Below, piece after piece: positions 2,180 through 12,076 of a DNA stretch of 32,147 bases. Origin of the DNA: Chloroflexi bacterium RBG_16_56_11 (lineage in GTDB: Bacteria > Chloroflexota > Dehalococcoidia > Dehalococcoidales > RBG-16-60-22); assembly GCA_001796865.1 (NCBI GenBank), contig MGNQ01000036.1, forward strand, positions 1 to 32,147. Direction: 5' to 3'. Numbering within the stretch: the first letter of the stretch is position 1; each line of letters opens with the position of its first letter. Position numbers and translations under genes: made by a program. The notes under the pieces were generated by a model. The model saw only the letters and a list, made by a program, of their open reading frames with translations. It was not told where the DNA came from and searched no databases.

Positions 2180-2815
2180 TTACAGCTTAATCTCTCTCGG
2201 CTTCACCCGGCATTTCTCGGCTGTGATGATGGCCCTGATTTCCTCCACCGCCCGGTCTACTTCCCCTTCCCGGTTGATGACGATATAGTCGAAAATCCGC
2301 AGTTGTTGAAGCTCTTTACGGGCAGTTTTGAGTCGCACCTCCACGTCAGAAGCGGACTCCGTACGCCGCTGCCGCAGCCGCTGCTCCAACTCTTCCATTG
2401 AAGGCGTCGCCAGGAAGATGAGCACCGCCCCGGGTAAAATCCGCTTCACCGTCGCCGCTCCCTGCACGTCTATCTTGACGATGACATCTTTACCCGCCGC
2501 CAGCGCCTCGCGTACCGGCTCATTCGGCACACCGTACCAGTTCTCGTAGACGTTGGCCCATTCCAGCAGCTCCTTTCGCTCGATTAGCTCCTGGAACCGG
2601 GCCGGCGTCACGAAGCGATAGTGGACGCCGTCCTTCTCGTTAGACCGCCGGGCCCGCGTGGTGAGGGTCACGATGAACTCGATAGGATAGCCGGACTGCC
2701 GCAATCGTTCCAGCACGACGTCCTTGCCCGAGCCGGAAAGCCCGGAAAGGACAATGAGCAAGGGCTGGCGCGCCGGGCGAAGGTCAGGGAATTTTTCAGG
2801 GTTCTTCGGCGCCAT
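2180..2815 (-). CDS. gmk: Guanylate kinase
   Basis: P-loop [16 protein letters not shown], then [20 protein letters not shown] and [10 protein letters not shown]. Likely start is the internal Met (MAPKNPEKF...) rather than the ORF-track start. Confidence 0.93.
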
Positions 2816-3086
2816 CGCCTGTTTCCTTGCCGGGCTGACTGCCCCGTATGGTCTGCAGCCGCGAGGCGATGGTCTCCGGGGCGAGGGCCGCCAGGACAAT
2901 GTGGCCGCTATCCGTAAAGATAACCGCCTTGGTCCGTCTCCCGCTGGTCATATCGATAAGTTTCCCGTTGGTGCGACCCTCGTGTATCGTCCGCTTGGTG
3001 GGCGCGGAGTTCGGTGATGCTATGGCTATAGTCCGGTTCATTGCCAGTATGTTGCCAAAACCGATGTGCACCAACTCTATCCCCAT
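2796..3086 (-). CDS. RemA-like (DUF370) regulatory protein
   Basis: [77 protein letters not shown] is the typical DUF370 family sequence. It lies upstream of gmk, a classic order. Confidence 0.9.
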
Positions 3087-3413
3087 ATCATCACCTCGTA
3101 AATTGTTCATGAATTAACCTCGCCGCGATGGATTTTTTACCGTTCCAATGATTTAAAAAGCACCGGGTAAATAAGCCGGTCGGTGAATCAGGCGAAAAAG
3201 CCCTCCAATACCCTATCACTTGTTTTCGAGCTTGTCAAGGGTGCTCGAAAGTCGCCGCTCGCCGCTTTTTTAGTATCACATGCAAAATAATTACATTTGT
3301 TTTGTTAAATATTTACATTTAAGCCCTTTTCAGAACGCGGCCGATGTGCTAGAATATATTCTGGTCAGTAGGGAAGGACTTTAACAACTGAAGCGAAATC
3401 GCAAGAGAAAAAC

Positions 3414-3538
3414 GCCTCTTGGTGGTTAGAGCGGGGTGGTACCACCCGTTCCCATCCCGAACACGGAAGTGAAACGCCCCAGCGCAGACGATACTGAGGG
3501 GGCAACCCTTTGTGGAAAATATGCCGCTGCCAGGAGGC
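3414..3538 (+). rRNA. rrf: 5S ribosomal RNA
   Basis: Diagnostic core 'taccacccgttcccatcccgaacacggaagtgaaacgccccagcg'. Terminal 9 bp stem gcctcttgg (3414-3422) with ccaggaggc (3530-3538), including one wobble pair. Confidence 0.95.
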
Positions 3539-3677: not shown

Positions 3678-6149
<2,472 letters not shown>

Positions 6150-8589: not shown

Positions 8590-9198
8590 TTGCGCCGTGA
8601 TAAGCTCCTGCTGGCGACCGGCAACCGCGGTAAGCAGCGCGAGTATAAAAGCCTGCTCCGTGGCATTTCCTTCGATATCGTCACGCCCTCCGAGCGGGGT
8701 ATCAACGTGGCCGTCGATGAATCGGGCGGCAGCTTCGAGGAGAACGCCCGGTTAAAGGCGGTCGCTTTTGCCGACGCTTCCGGCCTCCTGGCGCTGGCCG
8801 ACGACTCCGGTCTCGAGGTGGACGCTCTCGGCGGCGAGCCGGGCCCCCTCTCCGCCCGCTACGCTGGTGAAGGCGCCTCCGACAGCGATAGAATCAGCTA
8901 CCTCCTTTCCCGCCTCAAGGATGTCCCCGAAAAGCGGCGCATGGCCCGCTTCCGCTGCGTCATCGCCCTGGCCGAGCCTGCCGGCAAGGTCGAGATTTTC
9001 TCCGGCGAGTGCCGGGGGGTAATCACTACCTCGCCGCGCGGCGCCCACGGCTTCGGCTACGACCCCGTTTTCTTCCTGCCGGAGCTGGGTAAAACGATGG
9101 CCGAATTGACCGTGGAAGAAAAGAACCGGGCGAGCCACCGGGCGCGGGCCGCGGAAAAAGCCCGCGTCTTTCTTATGAACCTGCAACTTACTTCCTGA
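8590..9198 (+). CDS. rdgB: XTP/dITP diphosphatase (RdgB/HAM1 family)
   Basis: LLLATGNRGKQREYKSLL, ALADDSGLEVDALGGEPGPLSARYAGE, GAHGFGYDPVFFLPELGKTMAEL. TTG start. Confidence 0.95.
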   Translation: MRRDKLLLATGNRGKQREYKSLLRGISFDIVTPSERGINVAVDESGGSFEENARLKAVAFADASGLLALADDSGLEVDALGGEPGPLSARYAGEGASDSDRISYLLSRLKDVPEKRRMARFRCVIALAEPAGKVEIFSGECRGVITTSPRGAHGFGYDPVFFLPELGKTMAELTVEEKNRASHRARAAEKARVFLMNLQLTS

Positions 9199-10107
9199 CG
9201 TTCAACTGTCTTACCGGCCTGGCTTCGATATAGCCGCGGTATCCCTGGGGTTCGAGCTGGAACCGGGGCCCGTCCTCGTCCGCCCATTTGAAACCGTAAA
9301 GCTCCGGATTATAGGTCTTCATCACTTCCCACAGGTCGTGGATAGCTCGAATTTTGCATCGTCATAAGGCTGCCCCTGGAAGACCATCATTTTACACGGC
9401 TTGAGGTCGATGATTTTATAGCCTTCCGGCACAGCGCCTTTATAGTCAGCCGGCATTTCCACGCCCATGGCGTATTCTGAAGTCCCCGGTTTGCGCAGGC
9501 TCTTCGGCAGCCACATCCCGATAGGCTCATAAAGGGCATCTTTCACGCCCTTAAGCTCCTGGTAAACGTCGCAGCCCAGTTCCTCGCAATACTCAAAATA
9601 GTGGGTTGCCTTGACGCCCCGCTTGAGTATCAGTTTTCGGGCCGGACGGTCGATGACCTGGACGAAAACGGTATTCGGATTCGGTTTGGATGTCATGATA
9701 TTTTCTCCTCTTTGCAAGCTAAGGTAATAGTCACGGGCAGGCTCGGGTATAAAAAGTTTCAACACGGGTTTGTTTTTACTGAAGTCCCGCGGGCTTATAC
9801 CGAACTGCCGGGAAAACGCCCGCGTAAACCCCTCGTGAGAATCGAAGACAAAGTCCAGGGCGACATCGATGACCCTGGTTTCTTCATCCCGCAGCTTAAC
9901 GGCCGCGCGCGACAGCCGCAGCTCCCTGATATACTCGAAAGGAGTTTTTCCTGTAATGTCCTTGAAGACCCGGGCGGCGTGCCACGGGGAATAGCCGGCC
10001 TCTCGAGCCAGCATATGCAGGGTTATCGGTTCCGTCACGTGCCGTTCGATAAAGTCCTGCATCCGCTGTACGGCGTTGACTTTTCCCCAGCTTTCCGTGT
10101 TTATCAC
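9188..10107 (-). pseudogene. AraC-family regulator with GyrI-like effector domain, frameshifted near the 3' end
   Basis: AraC HTH (MQDFIERHVTEPITLHMLAREAGYSPWHAARVFKDITGKTPFEYIRELRLSRAA) plus GyrI-like domain. The ORF stops at 9322, but the adjacent frame continues AIHDLWEVMKTYNPELYGFKWADEDGPRFQLEPQGYRGYIEARPVRQLNVRK* to 9188. Confidence 0.75.
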
Positions 10108-10284
10108 CTCGCAGGTAGAGTATAAAACGAAAGGAATCTTAAATCTTGATTTGAATTGCTGAAAATTTCAAGTAAAAGAAACCTGCATTATCGTAGAGAA
10201 ATGAATTAAAACAATTAGCCACCGAACAATTTCAACACGGAAGACTCTACATGTATTGTTAAGGTTAATCGTCAGGTAACTGTT

Positions 10285-10620
10285 TTAATATATACACGCA
10301 TCAAGTATAGCGAGCACTTCATTAAGCAAAGTATCCTTGGCCTTCCCGATGCGTTTCGCCCTACGGGTACGGAAATCGATTGACTTTACCTGTTCGACCA
10401 TAATAAAACCGCTGACAGACGGTTCGTTTACTATAGCCACATGGAACGGAAACCTCCGGTCAACACTCGTTATGGGGCAGACAATAGCCAGCCCGGTGCT
10501 TTCGTTAAAGAGAGTGTTGCTGACGACCAGGGCAGGGCGTCGGCCTCTTTGCTCATGTCCGGATTGAGGATCGAATGATGCTGTAATGAAGTCGCCTTTT
10601 TGCGGAATAAAAGCCTTCAT
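10285..10620 (-). CDS. mazF: MazF/PemK-family endoribonuclease toxin
   Basis: 'KGDFITASFDPQSGHEQRGRRPALVVSNTLFNESTGLAIVCPITS' followed by 'FIMVEQVKSIDFRTRRAKRIGK' are typical MazF. Confidence 0.93.
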   Translation of the reverse strand: MKAFIPQKGDFITASFDPQSGHEQRGRRPALVVSNTLFNESTGLAIVCPITSVDRRFPFHVAIVNEPSVSGFIMVEQVKSIDFRTRRAKRIGKAKDTLLNEVLAILDACIY

Positions 10621-10869
10621 CTACCACGTTTCCCTGCCAACCTGCTTCCCCCAATCTACTTCACCTGCTTGATAATTCCGGGGAATTCTTGAGACCAGTT
10701 CCTTAAGGTCCCGCTTTTCCCGGGGGCGTTTTACCGGAGAAATGATGATGACGCCGTCTTTTCCTGTGACTTCCACATCATCGCCAATTGATATATTGGC
10801 TTCTTCAAGCAAGTGCTTGGCAAGACGTAGACCCTGACTGTTGCCCCACTTTTGTACTTTTGTGACCAT
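10621..10869 (-). CDS. mazE: MazE-family (AbrB fold) antitoxin
   Basis: MVTKVQKWGNSQGLRLAKHLLEEANISIGDDVEVTGKDGVIIISPVKRP. The stop codon directly abuts the mazF ATG. Start set to the internal Met after cctcctgt (SD on minus strand). Confidence 0.92.
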   Translation of the reverse strand: MVTKVQKWGNSQGLRLAKHLLEEANISIGDDVEVTGKDGVIIISPVKRPREKRDLKELVSRIPRNYQAGEVDWGKQVGRETW

Positions 10870-10885
10870 GTCCACCTCCTGTGTA

Positions 10886-10921
10886 TATACCAAGTATAGC
10901 CCGAGGGCGAAATATTGTCAA
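10886..10921 (-). promoter_or_regulatory. mazEF promoter with overlapping palindromic operator
   Basis: Minus strand TTGACA (10916-10921), 17 bp spacer, TATACT (10893-10898). Perfect inverted repeat TATAC-N3-GTATA at 10886-10898 overlaps the -10. Confidence 0.7.
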
Positions 10922-11005
10922 GGGGTTTCCAGGTTTAGAATTTTTGTTTTACAGGAAGCAGCGGGCGGCTGAAAAAGCGCGTAAAATACTGATGAATATA
11001 TCCGG

Positions 11006-11117
11006 CTACGGCCCCGGCTGCTTTCCATCGATGTCGGTAAAGCCGTACTCCCGGGCGAGGGCGACGGAGAAGGCGAGAGAGAGGCTCATAGAAATGGCAG
11101 CCGGACCGAGGCCATTA
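11006..11117 (-). pseudogene. C-terminal relic of a coding sequence, SDR-like tail
   Basis: Minus-strand frame reads ...SINGLGPAAISMSLSLAFSVALAREYGFTDIDGKQPGP*. No start codon upstream; protein-like tail resembling SDR C-termini. Confidence 0.4.
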
Positions 11118-11186
11118 ATAGATTACTTACTGCTATTACGAGCGCAGCGGAGTTGTGTCCGCATTCAGCCATCTGTTGGATTTAAC

Positions 11187-11900
11187 TCATTCCTTCTCTT
11201 TCAAATTTTTCCATCCACTGCGAATTCTCTCAAGTAGAAGGATTCTTGAAGGGTCTCCAAGAGCATCGTCCAGCCGAGTAAAGTTTGTGCTTGAGACATA
11301 GTCTTGACCAACTCTCCAATCGATTAAATTGAACTGGCGTAGCTGAGGAGGAATCTCGCAATCGTCAATTAGAATTGGAATTATCCTTTTTCGTGCTTGT
11401 AAGGCTGCTCCAAGTTCTCTATTTACTTCCGGGCGATTAACTGATTTACTAGATAGAAGAATAATAAAATGGCTGCATGCATCCATAGCCTGATTTATGG
11501 CTTCCTGCCAGTTCTCTCCGGCTATAATATCAGCTGTGTCCTTCCAGATTGAATAACCTCGTCGTTTAAGTTCATTTTCTAAAAATGTTGCAAAGTGACC
11601 ATCCAGCCTTGCATATGAAATGAAGATTGTAGATCGCTTTGCAACATGGAAAGCGTTCATGCAGCCGGGTGATCGAGGAGGTTCTGTATCTGAAATATAC
11701 GCTTTGCCGCAACATCGGAAGACCCAGAGTTCCTTATAATCCTCCCTTGGCCCAGTATTACCGATTGAGTCTGCACCCAATGGATGATAGGAGCAGTTGA
11801 ATTCACTCCAAGGAGATTGCCGAGATGGATCAAACTCTTGGCCGCAATGGATACATTTGTCTGTGACCTTATTACTCTTCTTGTGCATAACTCTATCCAT
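11187..11900 (-). CDS. TIR-domain protein with N-terminal CHORD-like Cys/His zinc-binding pattern
   Basis: TIR: STIFISYARLDGHFATFLENELKRRGYSIWKDT...HFIILLSSKSVNRPEVNRELGAALQARKRIIPILID. N-terminus: C-x2-C...C-x2-H...CC...C-x4-H. Confidence 0.85.
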   Translation of the reverse strand: MDRVMHKKSNKVTDKCIHCGQEFDPSRQSPWSEFNCSYHPLGADSIGNTGPREDYKELWVFRCCGKAYISDTEPPRSPGCMNAFHVAKRSTIFISYARLDGHFATFLENELKRRGYSIWKDTADIIAGENWQEAINQAMDACSHFIILLSSKSVNRPEVNRELGAALQARKRIIPILIDDCEIPPQLRQFNLIDWRVGQDYVSSTNFTRLDDALGDPSRILLLERIRSGWKNLKEKE

Positions 11901-12076
11901 TTGTTTTCGATATTTCCCTCATTTAGTGCATTGTAATGCCTAATGGTTTATTTTGTCCTTTTATTCATTATTTTAAAACATTTTAGACCCCGTGCTATTA
12001 TATGTCAATGAGACACTTTTCATGGCAATAGCTTCCGTCATCCCTTTCCTGTATAATATAGCTAGAGGATATCGTT

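What the first reader, a model, noticed from the sequence alone, without database searches (positions are those of the whole stretch)
11187..11900. TIR protein with an N-terminal CHORD-like zinc-binding pattern
Seen: the N-terminus reads CIHCGQEF...CSYHP...W.FRCCGKAY...SPGCMNAFH, giving C-x2-C / C-x2-H / CC / C-x4-H, followed by a complete TIR domain with the expected Glu (NRELGAAL). Established knowledge: CHORD domains (e.g. plant RAR1) use a C-x4-C / C-x2-H / CC / C-x4-H ligand series with a preceding W and a PGC motif. RAR1 acts with HSP90/SGT1 in NLR (including TIR-NLR) immunity. Inference: a bacterial single-chain CHORD-like + TIR fusion could be a stress or phage sensor linked to an NADase effector. 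The first Cys pair spacing differs (x2 vs x4), so homology is not proven.
Basis: partly seen in the sequence, partly recalled or inferred. Interest (0 to 1): 0.72.

Follow-up and report, generated by a model that had tools for sequence, protein, structure and literature searches.

The report
Bacterial TIR protein with CHORD-like zinc domain
A bacterium related to Dehalococcoides carries, in a swappable gene slot, a stand-alone TIR protein (probably an NAD-destroying immune effector) whose front end has the same eight-ligand zinc pattern as the CHORD domain of plant and animal immune chaperones; this is unusual if real, but no second example could be found to prove the relationship.

Summary
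The ORF is real: 11187-11900 (-), 237 aa. Its C-terminal half is a confident TIR domain (Pfam TIR_2, 7.5e-27) with the catalytic Glu aligned (E162). Residues 16-85 hold the CHORD ligand series, using all six Cys: C16-x2-C19 / C36-x2-H39 / C63C64 / C80-x4-H85. Only the first spacing departs from CHORD (x2, not x4). Resemblance to CHORD exceeds ligand spacing alone: hhalign gives 90.6%, 0 of 400 shuffles with C/H fixed reach that, and it ranks first against 1,376 Cys/His-rich decoys. But Pfam CHORD does not fire, a two-sequence CHORD HMM gives only E=0.59, the unaligned AlphaFold model is uninformative, and no homologue of the N-terminus was found in phages, plasmids, about 700 Chloroflexota genomes or pattern scans of 84,980 species. 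The Hsp90-contact FH[DE] loop is missing and the genome (81% complete) shows no Hsp90, so an Hsp90/SGT1 role is unlikely. The gene lies with a MazEF pair in a 2.9-kb low-GC insert between rdgB/Ham1 and moaA, which are adjacent in eight relatives. Best reading: a single-gene TIR effector, working like SpbK, with a CHORD-like zinc sensor or oligomerisation domain. CHORD membership is plausible, unproven.

The parts
11187..11900 (-). gene of the two-domain protein, 237 aa (alternative start M5 at 11888)
   Evidence: TIR by Pfam
11646..11855 (-). CHORD-like zinc-ligand region, residues 16-85: C16 C19 C36 H39 C63 C64 C80 H85
11307..11627 (-). TIR domain, residues 92-198; E162 (11415-11417) aligns with the catalytic Glu of SARM1/TIR-1
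11980..12008 (-). sigma-70-like promoter TTGACA-17-TAAAAT upstream of the gene (consensus match only)
9199..12076 (.). accessory insert between Ham1/rdgB and moaA (low GC where it holds MazEF and TIR)
   Evidence: GC profile; adjacency of Ham1 and moaA in relatives
10285..10620 (-). MazF/PemK-like toxin in the same insert
   Evidence: PF02452 2.1e-27
10621..10893 (-). MazE-like antitoxin in the same insert, with its own promoter-like site at 10893-10921
   Evidence: PF04014 5.7e-10
9322..10107 (-). AraC-type regulator in the same insert
   Evidence: PF12833 2.7e-21

Best explanation
A single-gene, two-domain immune effector carried in an accessory-gene slot. The N-terminal module (residues about 16-85) folds around two Zn ions in CHORD topology, predicted as site A = C16, C19, C36, H85 and site B = H39, C63, C64, C80, and serves as the protein-binding and/or oligomerisation part. 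When it binds an unknown trigger (most likely a phage or stress-associated protein assembly) it clusters the C-terminal TIR domains; these form composite active sites using E162, consume NAD+ and stop growth (abortive infection). Shown: the ORF, the TIR domain, the aligned Glu, the ligand pattern, statistical similarity to CHORD, and the accessory location. Inferred: zinc binding, the CHORD fold, NADase activity, the trigger and the defence role.
For: TIR_2 E=7.5e-27. Closest solved TIRs are NAD hydrolases or NADase effectors: TIR-1/SARM1 and TIR-APAZ of SPARTA. CHORD-like N-terminus: 14 columns invariant across the window protein and two solved CHORDs; hhalign 90.6%, E=1.3e-6 for that pair; no C/H-fixed shuffle of 400 and no decoy of 1,376 reaches it; Smith-Waterman score reached by 0/3000 full shuffles and 2/3000 C/H-fixed shuffles for 2yrt. 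Accessory location: 2.9-kb insert at 41-49% GC around MazEF and TIR against about 60% flanking, absent between Ham1 and moaA in eight relatives and replaced by other cargo plus a MazE remnant in L215. No ThsA, pAgo or CD-NTase gene beside it. SpbK (PMC12847820) is a precedent: a stand-alone N-terminal sensor plus TIR protein activated by clustering.
Against: Pfam CHORD does not fire. A two-sequence CHORD HMM gives only E=0.59 in a 1.55-million-residue database, and phmmer of the N-terminus against the PDB finds nothing. AlphaFold without homologues gives pLDDT 46 for the N-terminus, with no usable fold match. There is no second example to show that the ligands are conserved. The CHORD comparison was chosen after the motif had been noticed. 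The WxxxE Trp is absent. No activity was measured.
Confidence: 0.5

Rival explanations
1. The N-terminus is a two-zinc module of two zinc ribbon/knuckle units that arose independently and only converged on the CHORD ligand order. The protein still works as a sensor-TIR effector.
For: C-x2-C-G-x2-[FY]...C-x-[YF]-H-P is a common single zinc ribbon in phage proteins. C-x2-C differs from the C-x4-C of classical CHORD. HMMER and Pfam do not detect CHORD. The strongest local similarity, CGQ-x-FDP...C-x-YHP, lies in this first half.
Against: The second half (CC...GC-x4-H) also follows CHORD, and the local alignment to 2xcm runs through to the last His. Phage zinc ribbons with the same first half score at most 25% in hhalign against 90.6%.
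Confidence: 0.33
2. The TIR half makes a signal nucleotide for a partner effector encoded elsewhere in the genome (Thoeris-like ThsB role), and the zinc module senses the trigger.
For: Weak matches to ThsB models (PF08937 1.4e-4; PADLOC ThsB 6.7e-5) and to ThcB4 (3.8e-9, far below its cut-off).
Against: No ThsA or other Thoeris effector gene next to it. The match is far better to general TIR_2 than to ThsB. Partner genes elsewhere in the genome were not searched for.
Confidence: 0.15
3. The gene is a degenerating or neutral passenger (orphan) of a turnover hotspot with no present function.
For: No homologue of the N-terminus anywhere searched; the hotspot in L215 holds a truncated MazE remnant.
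Against: Intact ORF, complete TIR domain, conserved catalytic Glu, all eight zinc ligands in order, and a promoter-like site upstream.
Confidence: 0.1
4. A bacterial counterpart of RAR1: a CHORD co-chaperone working with Hsp90 on NLR-like or TIR clients.
For: CHORD-like ligand pattern; a CS-domain (p23/Hsp20-like) protein exists in the genome.
Against: The loop carrying the Hsp90-contacting His188/Asp189 of RAR1 (PMC2935968) is not conserved; no Hsp90 in the own genome although the same search finds it in 5 of 14 control genomes; single, not tandem, domain.
Confidence: 0.03

Closest known systems
CHORD domain (PF04968; RAR1 CHORD-II 2xcm, CHP-1 2yrt)
   Same: Eight ligands in the same order; C-x2-H, CC and C-x4-H spacings; Gly-Gln and Phe after the second Cys; YHP; GC before the last spacing.
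   Different: First pair C-x2-C, not C-x4-C; 9-residue and 3-residue insertions; no FH[DE] Hsp90 loop; single copy; bacterial; not found by the Pfam model.
Rex3/REXO1-type CHORD (PMC12129344)
   Same: A single CHORD directly before a catalytic domain, as here. From memory (unverified) REXO1 also has C-x2-C.
   Different: Catalytic domain is a DEDDh exonuclease, not TIR; eukaryotic. The hhalign of the window protein to a recalled REXO1 sequence is weak (1.9%).
SpbK of Bacillus subtilis (PMC12847820)
   Same: Single gene, about 240-270 aa, N-terminal domain of about 90 residues plus C-terminal TIR; accessory location; clustering through the N-terminus activates the TIR NADase.
   Different: SpbK's N-terminus is a four-helix bundle with no zinc mentioned. 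The trigger of the window protein is unknown.
SPARTA TIR-APAZ and SARM1/TIR-1 TIR domains
   Same: Best sequence and fold matches of the TIR half; catalytic Glu aligned.
   Different: No APAZ, pAgo, SAM or ARM domains; the regulatory half is a zinc module.
Phage zinc ribbons with C-x2-CG-x2-[FY]...C-x-YHP (e.g. L054, L090)
   Same: First half of the motif.
   Different: One zinc site only; no CC...C-x4-H half; no TIR.

Membership tests
CHORD (PF04968) | eight zinc ligands, order C,C,C,H,CC,C,H | tested here: met
   ligand identities of RAR1 from PMC2935968
CHORD (PF04968) | spacings C-x4-C / C-x2-H / CC / C-x4-H | tested here: inconclusive
   three of four met; the first is C-x2-C
CHORD (PF04968) | match to the family profile above its cut-off | tested here: not met
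   no PF04968 match for the window protein nor in G000 at E<=0.1; own two-sequence HMM E=0.59
CHORD (PF04968) | CHORD fold with two interleaved zinc sites | tested here: inconclusive
   AlphaFold pLDDT 46, no significant fold match
CHORD (PF04968) | sequence similarity beyond the ligands | tested here: met
   0/400 C/H-fixed shuffles reach the hhalign value; 2/3000 reach the Smith-Waterman score
CHORD of RAR1/CHP-1 type (Hsp90 co-chaperone) | invariant His (and Asp/Glu) of the loop contacting Hsp90-bound nucleotide | tested here: not met
   loop LGADSIGNTGPREDYKELW holds no FH[DE]; function of the loop from PMC2935968
CHORD of RAR1/CHP-1 type (Hsp90 co-chaperone) | Hsp90 partner in the genome | tested here: not met
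   PF00183 absent from G000, which is 81% complete
TIR domain family (TIR_2) | profile match above cut-off over the full domain | tested here: met
   94.7 bits against cut-off 28, residues 92-198
TIR NADase | catalytic Glu aligned with SARM1 E642 | tested here: met
   E162 in NREL aligned with HKE of SARM1 and TIR-1
TIR NADase | NAD+ hydrolysis | not testable with these tools
   needs an assay
Thoeris ThsB | TIR of ThsB type next to thsA | tested here: not met
   neighbours are MazEF, AraC-type and housekeeping genes; ThsB models only weakly matched
SpbK-like stand-alone sensor-TIR | homologous helical N-terminal domain | tested here: not met
   the N-terminus is Cys/His-rich with no family match; resemblance is of architecture only

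The most novel reading that the evidence does not exclude
A true CHORD domain in a bacterium, fused to a TIR effector: the zinc module used by RAR1 in plant TIR-NLR immunity would have a bacterial immune counterpart, acquired from or ancestral to the eukaryotic one, and working without Hsp90.
Probability: 0.3. Interest if true: 0.75.

Novelty: new variant of a known kind. Interest (0 to 1): 0.5.

Why it matters
Bacterial TIR effectors are known with many sensor halves (SpbK helical bundle, APAZ, SAVED, STING), but a two-zinc CHORD-like half is not among the models searched here. CHORD is regarded as eukaryotic (PMC12129344; my recollection of Kaur and Subramanian 2018, not held). If the fold is confirmed, CHORD would have an Hsp90-independent, prokaryotic use beside a TIR domain, which bears directly on where the CHORD/TIR partnership of plant immunity came from. 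If only convergent, it is still an uncharacterised zinc sensor on a single-gene TIR effector that can be tested simply.

Tried and rejected
(1) Homologues of the N-terminus: 100 relatives, 400 phylum genomes, 245 class genomes with the full protein, 400 phylum genomes with the CHORD+window profile, plasmids, phages: only chance-level hits, in frames that mostly carry stops. (2) genome contigs, 84,980 species: exact 8-mers and a CC-G...GC-x4-H...F-x-S-[YH] DNA pattern (82 stretches; none is a real zinc-TIR protein). The pattern covers only the TGC-TGC codon pair and needs Gly after CC, so recall is partial. (3) viral contigs with steered alignments and patterns: only single phage zinc ribbons. 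(4) CHORD family across 400 Chloroflexota genomes: none over cut-off. (5) Btk-type zinc finger (from the PDB): no similarity to the N-terminus (0.33%). (6) CHORD (2yrt) tblastn in plasmids: best E=0.3, unrelated secretion protein. (7) AlphaFold without homologues: N-terminus uninformative.

Full report
What is there. The minus strand holds one intact ORF, 11187-11900, 237 aa. Pfam finds a TIR domain at residues 92-198 (TIR_2, E=7.5e-27, 94.7 bits against a cut-off of 28). No Pfam or PADLOC family covers the first 90 residues at E<=10, and NCBIfam gives only a sub-threshold RNA polymerase subunit P ribbon at residues 15-38. The six Cys and two of the four His of this stretch form C16-x2-C19 / C36-x2-H39 / C63-C64 / C80-x4-H85. 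A loose form of this ligand pattern appeared in 0 of 200,000 composition shuffles and in no other reading frame of 1.55 million residues of six-frame translation.

Is it CHORD? In RAR1 the two zinc sites are C159, C164, C178, H218 and H181, C196, C197, C213 (PMC2935968), that is C-x4-C / C-x2-H / CC / C-x4-H. The window protein has the same order and three of the four spacings. MAFFT with the two CHORD sequences of the PDB (2yrt, 2xcm) gives 14 invariant columns, including CGQ-x-F and HP. Profile comparison gives 90.6% probability over 56 columns. I calibrated this because single pair values mislead: of 1,376 Cys/His-rich windows taken from all fetched DNA the best reached 53.6% (a locus pre-selected by the CHORD model) and the next 24.7%; of 400 shuffles of the query with Cys and His fixed the best reached 69%. 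Smith-Waterman shuffles agree: 0/3000 full and 2/3000 C/H-fixed shuffles reach the score against 2yrt. So the resemblance goes beyond the ligands. The decoys are mostly non-coding frames and the comparison was chosen after the motif was seen, so these figures overstate the case.

What speaks against filing it as CHORD. The Pfam CHORD model does not fire. A two-sequence CHORD HMM gives E=0.59 for the window protein, third in a database that includes loci pre-selected for CHORD. phmmer of the N-terminus finds nothing in the PDB. The first pair is C-x2-C and the linker after YHP is nine residues longer. The structure prediction without homologues is not usable (pLDDT 46). Most of all, there are no homologues. 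Searches of relatives, class, phylum, plasmids, phages and viral contigs, and two scans of 84,980 species, returned no second protein with this N-terminus.

The Hsp90 connection. RAR1 His188, invariant in CHORDs, and Asp189 contact Hsp90-bound nucleotide (PMC2935968). The equivalent loop here lacks them. The genome, 81% complete, shows no Hsp90, although the same search rings in five control genomes. A CS-domain protein is present, but CS/Hsp20-like proteins are common. The RAR1-like chaperone idea is therefore unlikely.

The TIR half. The best solved sequence relatives are TIR-1/SARM1 and the TIR-APAZ of SPARTA, and even the poor full-length model matches those folds. E162 aligns with the catalytic Glu of SARM1. 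The Trp of WxxxE is replaced (E158), but the TIR of the BabAgo SPARTA complex also lacks a Trp there in the alignment. NADase activity is a reasonable inference, not shown.

Neighbourhood. FBPase, Ham1/rdgB, moaA, moaC and dnaN form a conserved order. In eight relatives Ham1 is followed directly by moaA, by at most about 230 bases (L214, L217, L218, L220-L224). In the window a 2.9-kb insert separates them, holding an AraC-type regulator, a MazE/MazF pair and the TIR gene, with GC 41-49% around MazEF and TIR against about 60% outside. L215 carries different cargo at the same place, with a remnant ending like MazE. The conserved flanks show that the gene lies in a bacterial chromosome and is not eukaryotic contamination. 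The TIR gene and mazE each have a good promoter-like site, so the TIR gene is probably a single-gene unit. No partner of Thoeris, CBASS or SPARTA lies beside it.

Mechanism. The closest working parallel is SpbK (PMC12847820): an N-terminal domain of about 90 residues binds a phage portal ring, clusters the TIR domains and switches on NAD+ cleavage. The window protein has the same layout with a zinc module in place of the helical bundle. I think it most likely that the zinc module recognises or assembles on a trigger and the TIR domains then deplete NAD+. Confidence for this whole picture is 0.5; that the zinc module is a true CHORD, about 0.3. What it works like (a stand-alone sensor-TIR effector) is better supported than what family its front half belongs to.

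Verdict. The finding is an orphan with a coherent and testable reading, filed as a new variant of bacterial TIR effectors, not as a proven CHORD protein.

Noticed in passing
window 9199-12076: Gene-turnover hotspot between Ham1/rdgB and moaA: empty in eight relatives, different cargo plus a MazE-like C-terminal remnant in L215 (about 2613-3414).
   Followed up: partly
window 10285-10893 (-): MazE/MazF-like toxin-antitoxin pair with a strong promoter-like site (TTGACA-17-TATACT, 10921-10893) directly before mazE.
   Followed up: no
L230 (G000:C22) and L231 (G000:C51): Two further TIR proteins in the same genome, both N-terminal TIR followed by long tails: one with repeats that look like pre-peptidase C-terminal domains, one with membrane segments and a solute-binding-protein-like tail.
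   Followed up: partly
L054, L061, L074, L083, L087, L090, L094, L098, L100, L101, L105: A recurring small phage protein ending in a single zinc ribbon (CSTCGHEYTPACDYRQGRCPYHPA-type) shares the first half of the motif.
   Followed up: no
window 10961-10981 and 9144-9164: A 21-base stretch resembling the 3' end of Ham1 (18 of 21 identical; score barely above shuffles, 27 against a maximum of 25) lies between mazE and the TIR gene; possibly a decayed duplicate at the insertion edge.
   Followed up: partly
window 11585-11598 / 11634-11647: A 14-base inverted repeat (93%) within the gene at the start of the TIR domain.
   Followed up: no
window 3418-3535 (+): 5S rRNA gene (Rfam RF00001, 90 bits) just upstream of a ClpC-like ATPase gene (3678-6149), with no other rRNA or tRNA gene found in the window.
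   Followed up: no
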